DNA from: JACPSX01 sp035288405 [NCBI: bacterium]
GTDB taxonomy: Bacteria; JACPSX01
NCBI GenBank assembly: GCA_035288405.1
Contig: DATEAK010000331.1
Span: forward strand, 1 to 5,691
Direction: 5' to 3'
DNA length: 5,691 bases
The first letter of the stretch is position 1, and every line of letters begins with the position of its first letter. Made by a program: the position numbers and the translations under genes. Positions 1 through 5,691 of the stretch are shown in pieces. Below the pieces are notes generated by a model. The model ran no database searches, had not been told where the DNA came from, and saw nothing but the letters and a program-made list of their open reading frames with translations.

Positions 1-140
1 AGGGAAACCCAGACGACGCACCAGGCGAGGGCCTCGCGGAGGGACAGCACATGGGGTCTCCGGTGAAACACGGCGAGGTCGATGATGAGCATCACCGATA
101 CCATGACGCCGAAGGCCACCCATAACCACAAGTTCTCCAT
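1..140 (-). CDS. TerC/Alx family integral membrane protein (N-terminal part, cut by window edge)
   Basis: The ATG at 140-138 opens a frame of 46 codons that runs off the left edge. The peptide begins MENLWLWVAFGVMV, continues through a hydrophobic segment ending in LIIDLAVFHRR, and then reads HVLSLREALAW followed by a second hydrophobic stretch. This pattern (first helix ending in a D-L-x-V-F-H turn, then S-L-R-E-A-L-x-W) is typical of the TerC family N-terminus. Family members are multi-pass inner-membrane proteins linked to tellurite resistance and, in the Alx/MntP-associated branch, to manganese or other metal-ion handling. A strong GGAGG at 149-145 sits 4 nt before the start. The gene follows a candidate terminator and promoter, so it is probably a separate transcription unit from the two-component operon upstream. 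The substrate cannot be told from the N-terminus. Confidence 0.85.
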   Translation of the reverse strand, partial: MENLWLWVAFGVMVSVMLIIDLAVFHRRPHVLSLREALAWCVVWVS

Positions 141-314: not shown

Positions 315-1679
315 CTAAGAAACGGCTCGTTCAGGCTTCAACCCATACCGTTTGATCTTGTGGTAGAGAGTCACCCGATCGATCCCCAGGGCACGGGCGG
401 ACCGGGAAATGTTCCAGTGATTCTGCTTGAGAACCTCCAGAATGTGATGGCGCTCGATCTCCTTCAAGGATTCCATCCCTGTCCTCTCGGAGCCATCATC
501 CCCTTCCACCGTGAACAGGCCTAAATCACTGGGCTGCAAAATGCCGCCCGAGCCGACTACGGCACCTCTCTCCAGGACGTTTCGCAGCTCGCGTACGTTT
601 CCAGGCCAGTCCCGGGACAGGAGAAGGTCCATGGCTTCCCTGGAAACTCCTTCCAGATTTTTTGCCATCTCCACGCTGAGTTGACCGAGAATATGTTCCA
701 CCAGCAGGGGAATATCCTCTTTGCGCTCCCGCAGTGGAGGAAGAGTGATGGCAATGACGTTCAGGCGGTAGTAGAGGTCTTCCCGGAATGTTCCTTCTTC
801 CACGAGCTTCTTTAGGTTGCGGTTCGTTGCGGCAATGAGGCGCACGTCGACCTTGATCAGCTCGCTCCCCCCGACGCGCCGGAATTCTCTCTCCTCGATA
901 ACGCGCAGCAAGTCAAGCTGGAGCTTGGGGCTGATATCCCCGATCTCGTCCAGGAAGAGCGTTCCCCCGTGGGCCATTTCGAATTTCCCCTTGTTGCGGC
1001 TCACGGCGTCCGTAAAGGCTCCTTTCTCGTGGCCGAAAAGCTCGCTCTCCAGCAGTGTTTCCGTGAGCGCTGCGCAGGAGACTTCCACAAACGGGCCGTT
1101 GCTACGGGGGCTTTCCGCATGGATCGCTCGGGCCAGAAGTTCCTTTCCGGTACCGCTTTCCCCCAGGATCAGGACCGTGGAGTTACTCTTGGCCGCTGTT
1201 TTGGCCAGTTCGAAGAGTCCCTGCATTCGGGGACTCTTGCTCAGCAGATCCCGGAACCGGTACTGGCGCTTGAGTGCTTTGCGCAGAAGGATGTTTTCCC
1301 TGAGGAGATTTTGCTGGTTCACCAGCTTCTTGATCATGAGGGAGAGCTCTTCCGGCTCAAAGGGCTTGACCAGATAATCATAGGCCCCCATTTTCATGGC
1401 CTGCACGGCCGTATCCACCGTGGCGTACGCCGTCATAATCACAATGGCCGCCTCGGGTTTGATTTTCCGGGCGTTTTCCAGAACTTGCAGTCCATCCATT
1501 CCGGGCATCTTCAAATCCACGAGGAGGATGTTCCATTCACTTTCCTTAAGCTTGCCGATGGTGGTGGGGCCGTCGGGTGCCACATCGACAGTGTAGCCGT
1601 CTTCCTCCAGCCACCCCGAGAGCGACTCCCGCACAATCTCCTCATCGTCCACCACCAGGATCTTTACTTTCTCTCTCAT
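315..1679 (-). CDS. Sigma-54-dependent response regulator, NtrC/AtoC/ZraR class (REC-AAA+-Fis)
   Basis: This is the output half of a two-component system, a cytoplasmic activator that remodels sigma-54 RNA polymerase when phosphorylated. It has about 454 residues, normal for the class. Domains in order: a receiver domain (about 1-120) with acidic pair D11/D12, phospho-acceptor D55 in LLVDLKMPG, T83 and K105; a linker; an AAA+ domain (about 145-380) with Walker A GESGTGKE near 174-181, sigma-54 contact loop GAFTDA near 221-226, Walker B GGTLFLDEIGD near 239-249, a RLNV motif and WPGNVRELRN; and a C-terminal Fis-type helix-turn-helix (about 403-450) containing NISRSARALGIDRVTLYHKI. The loop departs from the usual GAFTGA. 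The start at 1679 is preferred over an upstream in-frame ATG near 1730 because the receiver domain begins there and GGAGG (1691-1687) lies 7 nt upstream. Its ATG overlaps the protease gene's TGA (ATGA), so translation is probably coupled. Its cognate kinase is almost certainly the heme sensor two genes upstream. The target promoters are unknown. Confidence 0.95.
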   Translation of the reverse strand: MREKVKILVVDDEEIVRESLSGWLEEDGYTVDVAPDGPTTIGKLKESEWNILLVDLKMPGMDGLQVLENARKIKPEAAIVIMTAYATVDTAVQAMKMGAYDYLVKPFEPEELSLMIKKLVNQQNLLRENILLRKALKRQYRFRDLLSKSPRMQGLFELAKTAAKSNSTVLILGESGTGKELLARAIHAESPRSNGPFVEVSCAALTETLLESELFGHEKGAFTDAVSRNKGKFEMAHGGTLFLDEIGDISPKLQLDLLRVIEEREFRRVGGSELIKVDVRLIAATNRNLKKLVEEGTFREDLYYRLNVIAITLPPLRERKEDIPLLVEHILGQLSVEMAKNLEGVSREAMDLLLSRDWPGNVRELRNVLERGAVVGSGGILQPSDLGLFTVEGDDGSERTGMESLKEIERHHILEVLKQNHWNISRSARALGIDRVTLYHKIKRYGLKPERAVS

Positions 1680-2299
1680 TTCCCTTCCTCCCGTAGTAAA
1701 TCCCCGAGAAGTACGGCGCAGTCCTGACAAAAAGCGCGGTTCTTGCGATCGACGTCAAAGACCGTGTTCGAGCGCTCCATGACACACCCACTGTTCGCGC
1801 AGTGAGTCAGTCCGAAGGTGTGGCCCAATTCGTGGAGACACTCCTTGAGCAACCGGTTCAGAAAGAGTCCGGGATTCCCGGATCGCCCGCCGGACTCTTC
1901 CCGCAGACGGGCCGTGGAAACAACCGCCCCTCTTCCTCCCAGTTGAGCTTCCCCGAAAACGAAGGTCAAAATCGGGATAAACAAGTCCCGGTCGGTAACC
2001 GCCAGGACTTTACGAGCATCACGGGGAAGACCTTCCAGAAGCCAGCGCAGGATGACCGTGGAAGAATGCTGTTTCCGGTTGGGATCAAAGGCCAGGGGAA
2101 TACTCCCCTTCCGGATCCGGACGCGGGTGCGGCAGTGAAATACCTTTTCGATGTGGGTTTGGACTCTGTTCAAGAGGCTGCCATCCATTTGCCCTTCTCC
2201 GATCCACTCCAGGTAGATGGCCCCCTCCAACCATGGAAGAGGAAAGGAGACCGACCGGGATGGATCATAGGACAAGTCGGTCGTACTGGGATTCTTCAT
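1676..2299 (-). CDS. amzA: Archaemetzincin family zinc metalloprotease
   Basis: A 207-residue predicted soluble cytoplasmic protein with no signal peptide or membrane segment. It carries the archaemetzincin signature: HELGHTFGLTH at 156-166 (three zinc-binding histidines 156, 160 and 166, catalytic E157), then C167, C172, M174 (the Met-turn) and C191-x-x-C194. The four cysteines fit the second, structural zinc site of the family. Upstream, VTDRDLFIPILTFVFGEAQ (about 101-119), then LGGRGAVVSTARLR, also matches the family core. Substrates of bacterial archaemetzincins are not established. The ATG at 2299 has AAGGA (2309-2305) 5 nt upstream. The gene overlaps the end of the kinase gene by 35 nt and shares ATGA with the regulator gene, so it is built into the two-component operon rather than merely adjacent. 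All catalytic residues are present, so it should be active. A role in signalling is inferred from position only. Confidence 0.92.
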   Translation of the reverse strand: MKNPSTTDLSYDPSRSVSFPLPWLEGAIYLEWIGEGQMDGSLLNRVQTHIEKVFHCRTRVRIRKGSIPLAFDPNRKQHSSTVILRWLLEGLPRDARKVLAVTDRDLFIPILTFVFGEAQLGGRGAVVSTARLREESGGRSGNPGLFLNRLLKECLHELGHTFGLTHCANSGCVMERSNTVFDVDRKNRAFCQDCAVLLGDLLREEGK

Positions 2300-3911
2300 C
2301 TTGTTCCTTGCCCGGCCGGCTCACCGGTAGATGGACAATCATCGTAGTCCCCCGGCCCGGCTCGGTCTGGATTTCCAGCTTCCCTCCATGACGCTCGATA
2401 ATCCCATAGACCACGGAGAGTCCCAGGCCGGTACCTTTTTCCTTAGTCGTAAAAAAGGGGTCAAAAATCTTGGAGAGGATCTCCGGTGGTATTCCGACCC
2501 CCGTATCGGTCAACCGGACTTGAACCCCCTCCTCCCCCTCGGGTGCCGACTCGATCGTAAGCGACCCTCCCTTATCCATAGCCTCGCAGGCATTCATAAT
2601 GACGTTGAGGAAAGCCTGCCGCAGCTGCGCAAAATCCGCCTGAATCGTTGGCAATGGGGAAAGGTTCTTCTGCAGGTGGATTTCCTGGATGATGAGCTGG
2701 TTACCCAGGAGGGAGAGGGCCTCCTCGATCACTTGGTTTACGTCTACATCGGCGAAGGAAAGATCCCGCTGCCTGGAAAAATCCAGAAGGTTGCGCACAA
2801 TTGTGCTGCAGCGCTGGGTCTCCCGCTCGATCAGGGAAAGATTCTTGAGAGATCCTCGCACAGCCTTCTCATCGGGCTGGCCGCGACTGAATTGCCGGAT
2901 CATGAGCTTGGCGTAGGTCAGAATCCCTGAAAGGGGGTTGTTGATCTCATGAGCAATGGAAGCCGCCAGCTTTCCCAAGGAGGCGAGTTTTTCCGATTGG
3001 ACCAGTTGCGCCTGAGCTTCTTCCAGAGCTCGGGTTCTCTCCCGTACTTTTTCTTCCAGTTTCTCCATAAGGCTCTGCAGATCTTCGTGTGCCCTTTTGA
3101 GAGAGCGGGTCATGCGGTTAAAGGCTTCTGCAAGAGATCCCATTTCGTCGGAGCGATCGACCGGGATCATGTGATCCAAGTCCCCCTCGGCGATCCGCTG
3201 CGTGCCCATCACGAGCTCTTGCACGGGACGGCCCACGAAGTGCCGGACCAGGAGCCAGACGAGCAGCGAAATCAACAGGACCGCTCCGGCCGCCAGGACG
3301 GCCGTCCGTCTTTGAATGGCGCCAATTTCCCGATCAATGTCCGCCAGGGAGATGCCGATATCGACCACCCCGAGGACCCTCTGGCTCGCCGGATGGACAT
3401 GGCAACTGCTCGTGTAGCAACTCTTCTCGTTGTAAATGGGGGTGATCATCCCGAGGATGCGGTGTCGATTTCCATTCCTCCCCTCGTAAATGCGCGCTCG
3501 GGCCTGAGTGACAAGACTGACAGCCGGCCTGGTCATGCCCGGCCCGTGGCAGGCGTAGCACGCCTCGGCCTGTTTATCCACCAGCTCATTGATTTCGGAC
3601 TTGCTGGTGGAGAAAGTGATCTTCCCTTCTTTGTTGAAGATCCTGACTTTCTCGATCCCCTCCTGCCGGCCGATGGTTTCCATGACCAAGTAAGCGTCTT
3701 GCCGGCGATCCTCGAGCATGTCCCGATAGGTGCTGCTTTTTACCGTGTCGCTAAAGAGGCTTGCCCCTCGCACCACTTCACTGATCAGGTGCTGGCGCTG
3801 AGTGCGAATCGAGACGTAGGAGAAAGCCAGAACCACGATGACGTTCACAATTCCGACGGCGATGACGACCTTTGTGCTTAAGTTGTTCCAGCCACCGGGC
3901 TTCAGGCGCAC
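2265..3911 (-). CDS. Membrane sensor histidine kinase with periplasmic c-type heme motifs (HAMP-HisKA-HATPase)
   Basis: Predicted inner-membrane sensor kinase of about 548 residues. Order: TM1 (about 15-34); a periplasmic PAS/Cache-like domain (about 35-203) with CYACH (CXXCH, 118-122) and CYTSSCH (CX4CH, 165-171) followed by VHP; TM2 (about 204-226); HAMP (about 227-278, ending [16 protein letters not shown]); a coiled coil; HisKA with phospho-acceptor H321 in [10 protein letters not shown]; and a HATPase_c domain with N box [11 protein letters not shown]1 DTGVGIP, F box FDPFFTT and G2 GTGLGL. The two motifs imply one or two covalent hemes, so redox state, O2, NO or another heme ligand is the likely signal; this is inference. 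The start is ambiguous: an in-frame TTG at 3923 also opens the frame, but GGAGG (3921-3917) overlaps it and stands 5 nt before GTG 3911, so GTG is preferred. The gene is the first of a kinase-protease-regulator operon and overlaps the protease gene by 35 nt. Confidence 0.94.
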
Positions 3912-4058: not shown

Positions 4059-4089
4059 ACGCCCGCGTTGCTTAATTCAACGACAGATG

Positions 4090-4179: not shown

Positions 4180-4380
4180 CTACTCGCTTTCCTGGATCTC
4201 CTTAATCTCCTCCTCGACCTCAGCGAGCTCAGCTTCCAGGTGCTCTTTGTGCAACTCAAGGTCCTTTAGGGCTTGCTCCTTTGTGACCACAAAGCCCGGA
4301 CAGCCGCAGCAAGGACAGCCGTGGCCACGGCTCTGAAAAATCCCCCAGCCAATGCGAGCCGCATGGAAATGCCTTCTCAT
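4180..4380 (-). CDS. Small cysteine-rich coiled-coil protein of unknown function
   Basis: A 66-residue protein. The N-terminal third is basic and His-rich (MRRHFHAARIGWG), followed by a tight cysteine cluster GCPCCGCPGF (C22, C24, C25, C27) with H20 just before it. From residue 33 to the end it is a charged helix with leucine-rich spacing (TKEQALKDLELHKEHLEAEL and onward), likely a coiled coil. The layout resembles small metal-binding-head plus coiled-coil proteins found widely in anaerobes, including DUF5320-like ones, but I cannot assign a family with certainty. The ATG at 4380 is chosen because AAGGAG (4394-4389) stands 8 nt upstream; further in-frame upstream codons lack this. It follows the arsC gene after a 62 nt gap and may be co-transcribed. 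A role in binding a metal or metalloid, or in assembly with a partner, is a guess from the cysteine cluster and context. Confidence 0.75.
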   Translation of the reverse strand: MRRHFHAARIGWGIFQSRGHGCPCCGCPGFVVTKEQALKDLELHKEHLEAELAEVEEEIKEIQESE

Positions 4381-4413
4381 CTCCGTTACTCCTTCCCCCC
4401 GAGAATTTACAAT

Positions 4414-4434
4414 GTTCCAGGAGCGATCCTGAAC
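4414..4434 (-). repeat. Inverted repeat (hairpin) between arsC and the cysteine-rich small gene
   Basis: On the minus strand GTTCAGGA (4434-4427), loop TCGC, then TCCTGGAAC (4422-4414) gives an 8 bp stem with a single bulged G. It starts 8 nt after the arsC stop codon. No T run follows, so it is not a standard intrinsic terminator. It could protect the 3' end of the upstream message or lower read-through into the small gene. Confidence 0.4.
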
Positions 4435-4442
4435 CGTTTGAA

Positions 4443-4862
4443 TCAACCTGCTAAGATTTCAGAGATCAGAGCGTGCACGGCAGTCTCGATTTGGTCGCGA
4501 ATCTCCCGAAACTTGGACAAGATCTCTGAGTCGGTCCCTCTCGCAGCAGCCGGATCCTCTAGAGGCCAATGTAGCCTCTTGACCTGGGGCGGCAGGACGG
4601 GACAGCGCTCCTCGGCGCTGCCGCAAACGGTAACTACCAGATCCATCTTCCGAGCCAGGGATTCGTCAAACGCCTTGGACTTCTGCCCCGAGATGTCAAT
4701 CCCCTTCTCTTTCATCACCTGCACGGCGTAGAAATTTAACTGACTCGGTTCCATGCCAGCGCTGGAGGCTTCTACCTGTCCCCGGCTGAAATGACGGGCA
4801 AATCCTTCGGCCATCTGACTGCGGGCAGAGTTTCCAGTGCACACGAACAAGATTCTCTTCAT
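4443..4862 (-). CDS. arsC: Arsenate reductase, thioredoxin-coupled type (LMW protein tyrosine phosphatase fold)
   Basis: Reduces arsenate to arsenite in the cytoplasm so that it can be exported. 139 residues, normal for the family. The phosphate/oxyanion loop is C8-TGNSA-R14-S near the N-terminus. C80 and C87, in VCGSAEERCP, match the spacing of the two extra redox cysteines (Cys82 and Cys89) of the staphylococcal pI258-type enzyme, in which Cys10, Cys82 and Cys89 form the relay to thioredoxin. D103 in WPLEDP is the expected general acid. These cysteines separate it from plain tyrosine phosphatases. The ATG at 4862 is preferred; a TTG two codons upstream (4868) is in frame but would overlap the permease stop. 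The start lies 2 nt after the permease stop and lacks a strong ribosome site, so translational coupling to the permease is likely. Confidence 0.93.
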   Translation of the reverse strand: MKRILFVCTGNSARSQMAEGFARHFSRGQVEASSAGMEPSQLNFYAVQVMKEKGIDISGQKSKAFDESLARKMDLVVTVCGSAEERCPVLPPQVKRLHWPLEDPAAARGTDSEILSKFREIRDQIETAVHALISEILAG

Positions 4863-4864
4863 GA

Positions 4865-5691
4865 TCAAAGTACCCAGTTGAAAAGATAACCCGTGAAAAC
4901 AATTCCCGCCCCGACAACTCCGATGAAGACAGCAAGCAGACGGGGCTTGAGGACTTTTCTCAAGATCACCATCTCGGGAAAGCTCAGAGCCGTGACGGCC
5001 ATCATGAAAGCGAGTGCGGTTCCCAGCGGGAGACCTTTCTCGATCAGGGATTGAACAATCGGGATTGTACCGGCCGCGTTGGCATACAGTGGGATACCGA
5101 TAAGGACGGCAACAAGCACTCCGAATGGATTCTCCTTGCCGGCATACTGGGCCAGAAGACCCTCGGGGGCGTAACCGTGGATGAAGGCTCCCACACCTAC
5201 TCCGAGAAGGACGAAGAGCCCCACCCGCTTGAGGATTTCCCGGCTATATTCCGCGCTGTCAAAGAGGCGCTGCCGAAAAGATGGAGAAAGGATTTCCGGG
5301 GACCTGCCCGTTTTGATTTCCCAAACATAGTCCTCCACAAAGCGTTCCAGGCGAAGGCGGCCAATCACGATTCCAGCTACGATGGCGATGAGAAGCCCCG
5401 ACCCAATGTAGAGAAGCGCGATCCTGACGCCAAAAAGCCCCCAGAGCAAAGCCAACGCGACTTCATTTACCATGGGGGAAGAAACCAGGAATGAAAACGT
5501 GACACCAAGCGGGATACCGGACTCCACAAAGCCGATAAACAGGGGAACTGCCGAACAGGAACAAAACGGCGTCACAATGCCCAAGGCGGCGGCCAGGCCG
5601 TTTCCCGTATATTCCCGCTTCTGCACTAAGAGCTGTCGGGCGCGCTCCGGGGGAAAGTACGAGCGAACCATCGAGACAGCAAACACGATGA
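4865..5691 (-). CDS. ArsP/DUF318 family permease (5' end outside the window)
   Basis: An inner-membrane permease; 275 residues are visible, and the frame stays open to the right edge (I-V-F-A-V at the edge), so the true start is outside. The visible part has about seven or eight hydrophobic segments and a large hydrophilic loop in the middle (around ERFVEDYVWEIK to EYSREILKR). The motif TPFCSCSAVPLFIGF, followed by SGIPLGVTFSFLVSSPMVNE, is the hallmark of this family, as is IPLYANAAGTIPI in the second half. Characterised ArsP members export trivalent arsenicals, including organic forms, and the CxC in the motif may help bind the metalloid. The direct link to arsC, 2 nt downstream, supports an arsenic role. 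Other DUF318 proteins have no known substrate, so export of arsenite or methylarsenite is inference. Confidence 0.88.
   Translation of the reverse strand, partial: IVFAVSMVRSYFPPERARQLLVQKREYTGNGLAAALGIVTPFCSCSAVPLFIGFVESGIPLGVTFSFLVSSPMVNEVALALLWGLFGVRIALLYIGSGLLIAIVAGIVIGRLRLERFVEDYVWEIKTGRSPEILSPSFRQRLFDSAEYSREILKRVGLFVLLGVGVGAFIHGYAPEGLLAQYAGKENPFGVLVAVLIGIPLYANAAGTIPIVQSLIEKGLPLGTALAFMMAVTALSFPEMVILRKVLKPRLLAVFIGVVGAGIVFTGYLFNWVL

What the first reader, a model, noticed from the sequence alone, without database searches (positions are those of the whole stretch)
315..3911. Archaemetzincin encoded inside a heme-sensor two-component operon
The zinc protease gene lies between the kinase and its response regulator, overlapping the first by 35 nt and the second by the ATGA. 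Such tight packing suggests the three products are made together in fixed ratio and work in one pathway. Archaemetzincins have no settled role in bacteria, so a fixed link to a redox/gas-sensing sigma-54 system would be a functional clue. The protease might trim the regulator, degrade a target under the sensed condition, or itself respond through its four-cysteine zinc site. None of this is shown by the sequence. The motifs and overlaps are.
Basis: partly seen in the sequence, partly recalled or inferred. Interest (0 to 1): 0.75.

Follow-up and report, generated by a model that had tools for sequence, protein, structure and literature searches.

The report
Protease wired into bacterial redox switch
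A zinc protease of unknown role sits, in many distantly related bacteria, inside the gene set of a sensor-regulator pair that appears to switch on a membrane electron-transfer complex, which makes the role of this orphan protease testable.

Summary
In detail: on the minus strand a two-heme-motif histidine kinase, an archaemetzincin (AMZ, M54) and an NtrC-type sigma-54 regulator lie in one tight run; AMZ and regulator share ATGA. The 35-nt kinase overlap depends on an uncertain AMZ start. Linked AMZs group on the tree, apart from most solo, archaeal and CarG forms (5 changes, 170 rows), and 186 of 186 keep HExxHx5HC. The link is to the regulator rather than to heme: many Deltaproteobacteria-type loci have kinases without heme motifs. 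New: the regulator's likely target is an operon for an Hmc-like redox complex with GcvH-like subunits, with sigma-54 sites (19 of 35 gaps, 0 of 35 on the reverse strand) and a dyad YGTTGAN5TCAACR (22 of 52 promoters, 0.05 expected). In the window's nearest relative that operon is on another contig, with both elements. I read AMZ as a third, regulatory component; what it cleaves or binds is not shown.

The parts
2265..3911 (-). Sensor histidine kinase with periplasmic domain, two c-heme motifs, HAMP, HisKA, HATPase_c (start GTG 3911, or TTG 3923)
   Evidence: sensor model mean pLDDT 89.8, folds alike include WalK 4ywz and heme sensor GSU0935 3b42
3546..3560 (-). CYACH c-heme motif
   Evidence: sequence; both motifs invariant in the 52 kinases aligned, which were picked for holding CXXCH
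3399..3419 (-). CYTSSCH (CX4CH) c-heme motif
   Evidence: sequence
1676..2299 (-). Archaemetzincin (peptidase M54), 207 aa; true start may be up to about 24 codons further in
   Evidence: PF07998, NF033823 above cut-off; fold match 3zvs E 1.4e-19; dN/dS
1718..1834 (-). Catalytic zinc and Cys4 motif HELGHTFGLTHC-X4-C-V-M...C-X2-C
   Evidence: H156, E157, H160, H166, C167, C172, C191, C194 invariant in 67 aligned linked AMZs; HExxHx5HC in 186 of 186 regulator-adjacent rows
2265..2299 (-). 35-nt kinase/AMZ overlap, if ATG 2299 is the start
   Evidence: doubt
1676..1679 (-). ATGA: AMZ stop and regulator start overlap
   Evidence: the same spacing in L001
315..1679 (-). NtrC-type sigma-54 response regulator (receiver, AAA+, Fis HTH), 454 aa from ATG 1679
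4066..4082 (.). Dyad CGTTGCTTAATTCAACG, 1 mismatch to YGTTGAN5TCAACR, upstream of the kinase operon; suggestive only
   Evidence: one in 3.3% of 300 shuffled windows; not kept within 1 mismatch in the relative L265

Best explanation
The three genes are one regulatory unit: a kinase with a c-heme periplasmic sensor (redox state or a gas such as NO, inferred) phosphorylates an NtrC-type activator; the activator binds dyads YGTTGAN5TCAACR and fires sigma-54 promoters of an operon for an Hmc-like membrane redox complex (Tat-type Fe-S protein, NrfD-type membrane subunit, c7 cytochrome, GcvH-like subunits, small Cys-rich protein). The archaemetzincin is a dedicated third component on the regulator side. 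Most likely it acts on the regulatory proteins themselves, binding the regulator (as its relative CarG binds CarD) and, since its catalytic residues are kept, cutting the regulator, the kinase or a partner to set or reset the response. Shown by sequence: gene linkage, AMZ grouping, intact catalytic residues, promoter and dyad patterns, target association. Inferred: the signal, AMZ-regulator contact, proteolysis.
For: Regulator adjacent in 70 of 80 loci found by AMZ alone: HK-AMZ-RR 34, RR-AMZ 32, AMZ-RR 4. In 247 genomes of the phylum of G008, all 115 AMZ places were classified: 61 regulator-adjacent, 9 beside target genes only, 37 solo, 8 at contig ends. Linked AMZs group with 5 changes in 170 rows. 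AMZ-regulator distance correlation 0.71 over 95 loci, 0 of 500 permutations as high. Sigma-54 sites of 14 bits or more in 19 of 35 regulator-to-target gaps, 0 of 35 on the reverse strand. Dyad within 1 mismatch in 22 of 52 promoters, 0.05 shuffled; 66 of 91 such dyads in 209 loci lie upstream of target genes. Strong GcvH-like profile matches in 59 of 60 genomes with linked AMZ, 2 of 31 with other AMZ, 4 of 156 without. AMZ upstream or on the other strand for 55 of 56 target promoters. HExxHx5HC in 186 of 186. CarG, coupled to carD, binds CarD (PMC8156234, passages). A Thermococcus AMZ cuts casein (PMC4681839, passages).
Against: No experiment, substrate or contact. The 55 of 56 is limited by what was fetched: in 17 of 120 loci target genes lie upstream of AMZ on the same strand, only one of which (L077) had its promoter in view, so read-through from the target operon into AMZ is possible there. 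Four genomes (G286, G336, G412, G420) have the GcvH-like gene without AMZ; 12 of 33 linked Acidobacteriota genomes lack a strong GcvH-like match. Nine places have target genes but no regulator within my distance rule, though L241 has one a little further off. Archaeoglobus AMZ had an occluded site and no activity on tested substrates (PMC3427221, passages). CarG lies with solo and archaeal forms, so it is an analogy. Distance correlations are not corrected for species history.
Confidence: 0.45

Rival explanations
1. AMZ acts on the output: a cytoplasmic maturation or quality-control protease for a subunit of the Hmc-like complex (GcvH-like, Cys-rich or Fe-S protein before export).
For: The GcvH-like profile tracks linked AMZ in 59 of 60 genomes; 9 of 115 places have AMZ beside target genes and no regulator within the distance rule; in 17 of 120 loci target genes lie upstream of AMZ on one strand; AMZ-HmcB distance correlation 0.66 over 48 loci.
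Against: AMZ is upstream or on the other strand for 55 of 56 target promoters in view. In the window's relative AMZ stays with the regulator while the target operon is on another contig.
Confidence: 0.28
2. AMZ is a non-proteolytic zinc-bound co-regulator of the activator, as CarG is for CarD.
For: CarG precedent (PMC8156234, passages); ATGA coupling to the regulator gene in the window; Cys4 site invariant in 67 aligned.
Against: CarG-like rows have HQ in place of HE, whereas 186 of 186 regulator-adjacent AMZs keep HE.
Confidence: 0.2
3. The proximity is accidental or simple hitch-hiking of a housekeeping protease gene.
For: Solo AMZ genes exist in the same phyla: 37 of 115 places.
Against: Two gene orders, many phyla, one tree group, association with the target.
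Confidence: 0.03

Closest known systems
Archaemetzincin AmzA (Archaeoglobus 3zvs/4axq, Methanopyrus 2x7m), peptidase M54
   Same: Fold and zinc/Cys4 motif
   Different: The window AMZ belongs to a bacterial group tied to an NtrC-type regulator; the archaeal forms and 44 of 50 solo rows lie apart
CarG (Myxococcus xanthus), partner of CarD
   Same: AMZ-like zinc protein, translationally coupled to and binding a transcription regulator (PMC8156234, passages)
   Different: CarG has HQ for HE and no protease activity (same passages); CarG-like rows lie elsewhere on the tree; its partner is not an NtrC-type regulator
c-heme periplasmic sensors: sCache_heme/DUF3365 family; sensors with two motifs Gsu0591, Gsu0599, Adeh_2011, Adeh_3383
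   Same: PAS/Cache-like fold with CXXCH; a further heme motif is reported for these four (PMC3831638, passages; PMC12889525, abstract and passages); fold match 3b42
   Different: No DUF3365 Pfam hit at 1e-3; here the second motif is CX4CH and the operon holds a protease
Hmc complex of sulfate reducers (HmcB, HmcC, HmcD)
   Same: Target Fe-S and membrane subunits of L009 match HmcB (343.9 bits) and HmcC (512.2 bits)
   Different: Both below the curated cut-offs (420, 550); several GcvH-like subunits are present, which by eye lack a lysine at the lipoyl place
Geobacter BccR (GSU0598) control of CbcBA (recalled; one search found no held paper)
   Same: Recalled as a sigma-54 regulator of an inner-membrane electron-transfer complex; Gsu0599 has two heme motifs (PMC3831638, passages)
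   Different: No archaemetzincin is known to me there; not tested

Membership tests
Archaemetzincin (M54) | HEXXHXXGXXHC-X4-CXM-X17-CXXC signature (as given in PMC3427221) | tested here: met
   spacing checked by eye
Archaemetzincin (M54) | NCBIfam NF033823 above curated cut-off | tested here: met
   170.8 bits against 145
Archaemetzincin (M54) | Archaemetzincin fold | tested here: met
   model pLDDT 90.0; 3zvs TMt 0.90
Archaemetzincin (M54) | Proteolytic activity | not testable with these tools
   needs the protein
CarG-type non-proteolytic protein (NF033824) | Above family cut-off and catalytic Glu lost | tested here: not met
   96.3 bits against 250; Glu present
NtrC-type sigma-54 response regulator | Receiver, AAA+ with GAFTGA-type loop, Fis HTH | tested here: met
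   loop GAFTDA, as in 8 of the 95 regulators nearest AMZ
sCache_heme (DUF3365) | Pfam PF11845 match | tested here: not met
   no match at 1e-3, though the fold resembles 3b42
c-type heme sensor | Covalent heme bound | not testable with these tools
   motifs only
Hmc complex (target operon) | HmcB and HmcC above curated cut-offs | tested here: not met
   L009 proteins 343.9/420 and 512.2/550: Hmc-like only

The most novel reading that the evidence does not exclude
A proteolytic three-component signalling system: a dedicated archaemetzincin lineage is a catalytically active member of an ancient sigma-54 two-component module and cleaves its activator or kinase to gate an Hmc/GcvH-like electron-transfer complex. 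This would be, as far as I know, the first defined role for a proteolytic bacterial archaemetzincin.
Probability: 0.3. Interest if true: 0.87.

Novelty: new variant of a known kind. Interest (0 to 1): 0.72.

Why it matters
Archaemetzincins have no settled biological role. Here one group is tied to a pathway with a predicted regulator, binding site, promoter and target operon, so its role can be tested in a culturable host. It also points to an Hmc-like redox complex with GcvH-like subunits, which my searches of the held papers did not find described.

Tried and rejected
Rejected: chance or strain-specific order. Rejected: that the heme sensor is the constant partner. Not established: that CarG arose inside the linked group; it lies with solo and archaeal AMZs. 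A strong sigma-54 site in the window itself: none (best 10.3 of 18.1 bits; consensus scan 1 weak match against 4.68 expected). Rfam: no match. Lipoyl lysine in the GcvH-like proteins: E[ST]xK occurs in 15 of 132 ORFs, by eye mostly not at the lipoyl place. The regulator tree has only 5 true outsiders (L241 was mislabelled by my distance rule), too few for a strong statement.

Method limits. The sigma-54 matrix is from a recalled consensus, and its 14-bit line was set after a first pass (21 of 35 at p 0.01 or less); over 343 loci 59 of 97 sites of 13.4 bits or more lie near target genes, 38 do not. The dyad was found and counted on the same promoters. The AMZ-to-regulator gap choice favours -4, so its overlap counts are not used. 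The 1e-50 line was set after seeing a gap between about 1e-53 and 1e-44; for Acidobacteriota the line was 1e-44. Fisher values ignore kinship. In Acidobacteriota 50 AMZ places of those listed were fetched; the rest counted as unlinked. A few contigs occur twice among the loci. Only 66 loci of the 108 linked tree rows went into alignment A1. Literature: searches found no held paper joining these parts (open-access library only).
Full report
What is in the window. The minus strand carries an ArsP-family permease, an ArsC-like reductase and a small ORF, then the kinase, the archaemetzincin (AMZ) and the regulator. AMZ passes its curated NCBIfam cut-off, matches solved archaemetzincins and keeps the catalytic and Cys4 residues. 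AMZ and regulator share ATGA. The 35-nt overlap with the kinase holds only if AMZ starts at 2299; residues 13-24 vary freely against L001 while the rest is under purifying selection.

How widespread it is. One scan of the genome collection with the AMZ protein gave 312 relatives, of which the best 80 were kept. They were chosen by AMZ alone. In 70 of 80 the NtrC-type regulator is adjacent: 34 HK-AMZ-RR, 32 RR-AMZ and 4 AMZ-RR where the script found no same-strand kinase (L003 begins inside it); 1 has only the kinase before a contig end and 9 have neither in range. Both heme motifs were found in 55 of 80. Titles of regulator-adjacent records include Tectomicrobia, Methylomirabilota, Rokubacteria, Nitrospinae, Deltaproteobacteria, Acidobacteria, Myxococcales, Actinomycetota, Gemmatimonadota, Neomarinimicrobiota, Bacteroidota, Zixibacteria, Stahlbacteria, Bacillota, Krumholzibacteria, Latescibacterota and Ignavibacteria (most are labels of metagenome-assembled genomes). 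In a sample not ranked by likeness to the window, 91 of 247 genomes of the phylum of G008 (its locus is labelled Deltaproteobacteria) hold AMZ at 1e-15; all 115 places were fetched and classified: 61 regulator-adjacent, 9 beside target genes only, 37 solo, 8 at contig ends. In the phylum of G007 (Acidobacteria by its locus) 20 of the 30 best-scoring loci are regulator-adjacent and 10 are solo.

One group. A tree of 170 AMZ rows (167 kept from 278, the window and two archaeal stretches; quick method) needs 5 changes between linked (RR or hmc) and other rows; the label RR alone needs 7 against a shuffled mean of 50.0 (0 of 500 as low). The window lies in a 97*-supported set of 21 regulator-linked rows. 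Archaeal rows, CarG-like rows (HQ) and 44 of 50 solo rows lie on the other side of the midpoint root; 6 solo rows fall on the linked side, and 6 RR rows and 1 hmc row fall on the other. All 186 regulator-adjacent AMZ rows (not dereplicated) keep HExxHx5HC.

The target. Near the module lie a small Cys-rich protein, GcvH-like proteins, an HmcB-like Tat-type Fe-S protein, an HmcC-like NrfD protein and a c7 cytochrome. Some such gene lies in the fetched flank of 63 of 80 loci; HmcB and HmcC both in 41 of 80. A sigma-54 matrix from the recalled consensus scores at least 14 in 19 of 35 regulator-to-target gaps and in 0 of 35 on the reverse strand; of 44 such sites in 2,524,034 scanned positions, 37 have a target-gene start near by on the same strand (counted from its list). 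Over 343 loci at 13.4 bits, 59 of 97 sites lie near target genes and 38 do not. Upstream of 52 dereplicated promoters the dyad GTTGA-N5-TCAAC occurred exactly in 8; no dyad reached more than 3 in 30 shuffles. As YGTTGAN5TCAACR it occurs within 1 mismatch in 22 of 52 (0.05 expected), within 2 in 33 of 52 (1.35 expected) and within 3 in 44 of 52 (9.7 expected). Over 209 loci, 66 of 91 sites within 1 mismatch precede GcvH, Cys-rich or HmcB genes.

The window's own lineage. Its closest relative (L001, genome G001) has the same kinase-AMZ-regulator run, with ArsC and ArsP-like genes upstream. The target operon is on another contig of that genome, C274 (L262): Cys-rich, two GcvH-like, HmcB, HmcC, c7, with a 14.4-bit sigma-54 site and a dyad within 1 mismatch upstream. 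Another kinase/regulator pair without AMZ lies divergent beside it, so its control may be shared. The window has one dyad within 1 mismatch upstream of the kinase (4066-4082), seen in 3.3% of 300 shuffles and not kept within 1 mismatch in the relative; I treat it as suggestive.

Genome-wide association. With the GcvH-like profile A3, strong matches occur in 59 of 60 genomes with linked AMZ, 2 of 31 with other AMZ and 4 of 156 without AMZ in the 247-genome sample. At least 17 of the 60 gave rows to the profile; without them it is 42 of 43. In the Acidobacteriota sample 21 of 33 linked genomes match strongly and 3 of the other 166, all three with an AMZ match. Further caveats stand under Tried and rejected.

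Mechanism. For 55 of 56 target promoters in view AMZ lies upstream (36) or on the other strand (19), so outside the sigma-54 operon; L077 is the exception. This is limited by the DNA fetched: in 17 of 120 loci target genes lie upstream of AMZ on the same strand and only L077's promoter was in view. Kept catalytic residues suggest that zinc chemistry is selected. CarG shows that an AMZ-like protein can be a transcription regulator's partner (PMC8156234, passages). I therefore favour AMZ acting on the regulator or kinase, most likely by proteolysis. Substrate, contact and signal are inferred. The sensor model resembles the WalK domain and the heme sensors GSU0935/GSU0582; heme Cache domains fused to signalling modules have properties of NO sensors (PMC12889525, abstract and passages).

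What is known. Sensor domains with two heme motifs are reported in Geobacter and Anaeromyxobacter (PMC3831638, passages), so the sensor is of a known kind. In two archaemetzincin papers (PMC3427221, PMC4681839; passages) the words operon and kinase do not occur. No held paper holds both archaemetzincin and histidine kinase.

Noticed in passing
window 4443-5686 (minus): ArsP-family permease and ArsC-like reductase (166.8 bits, under the 174.3 cut-off) upstream of the module; ArsC, ArsP-like and SBF-family genes also lie upstream in the relative L265.
   Followed up: partly
window 4180-4446 (minus): 88-aa ORF with clustered Cys and a charged, possibly coiled-coil tail; only sub-threshold Pfam matches (OapC, DUF5320).
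   Followed up: partly
window 1-140 (minus): Start of a membrane protein that looks TerC-like by eye (recalled); no Pfam match on the 46-aa fragment.
   Followed up: partly
L009 10600-11394, L005 5210-5878, L031 1184-2807 and others: GcvH-like subunits, DGG in 102 of 117 ORFs, that by eye lack the lipoyl lysine: perhaps a structural use of the GcvH fold.
   Followed up: partly
L036 738-7250: Two modules in tandem in one record labelled Bacteroidota: HK-RR-AMZ then HK-AMZ-RR, both gene orders side by side.
   Followed up: no
L262 6488-9287: A second, AMZ-free kinase/regulator pair divergent from the target operon in the nearest relative's genome.
   Followed up: no
L167, L169-L171, L173, L175, L176: Solo AMZs in longer open frames (282-335 aa) in the sample around G020; L167 and L176 sit on a long separate branch of the tree.
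   Followed up: no
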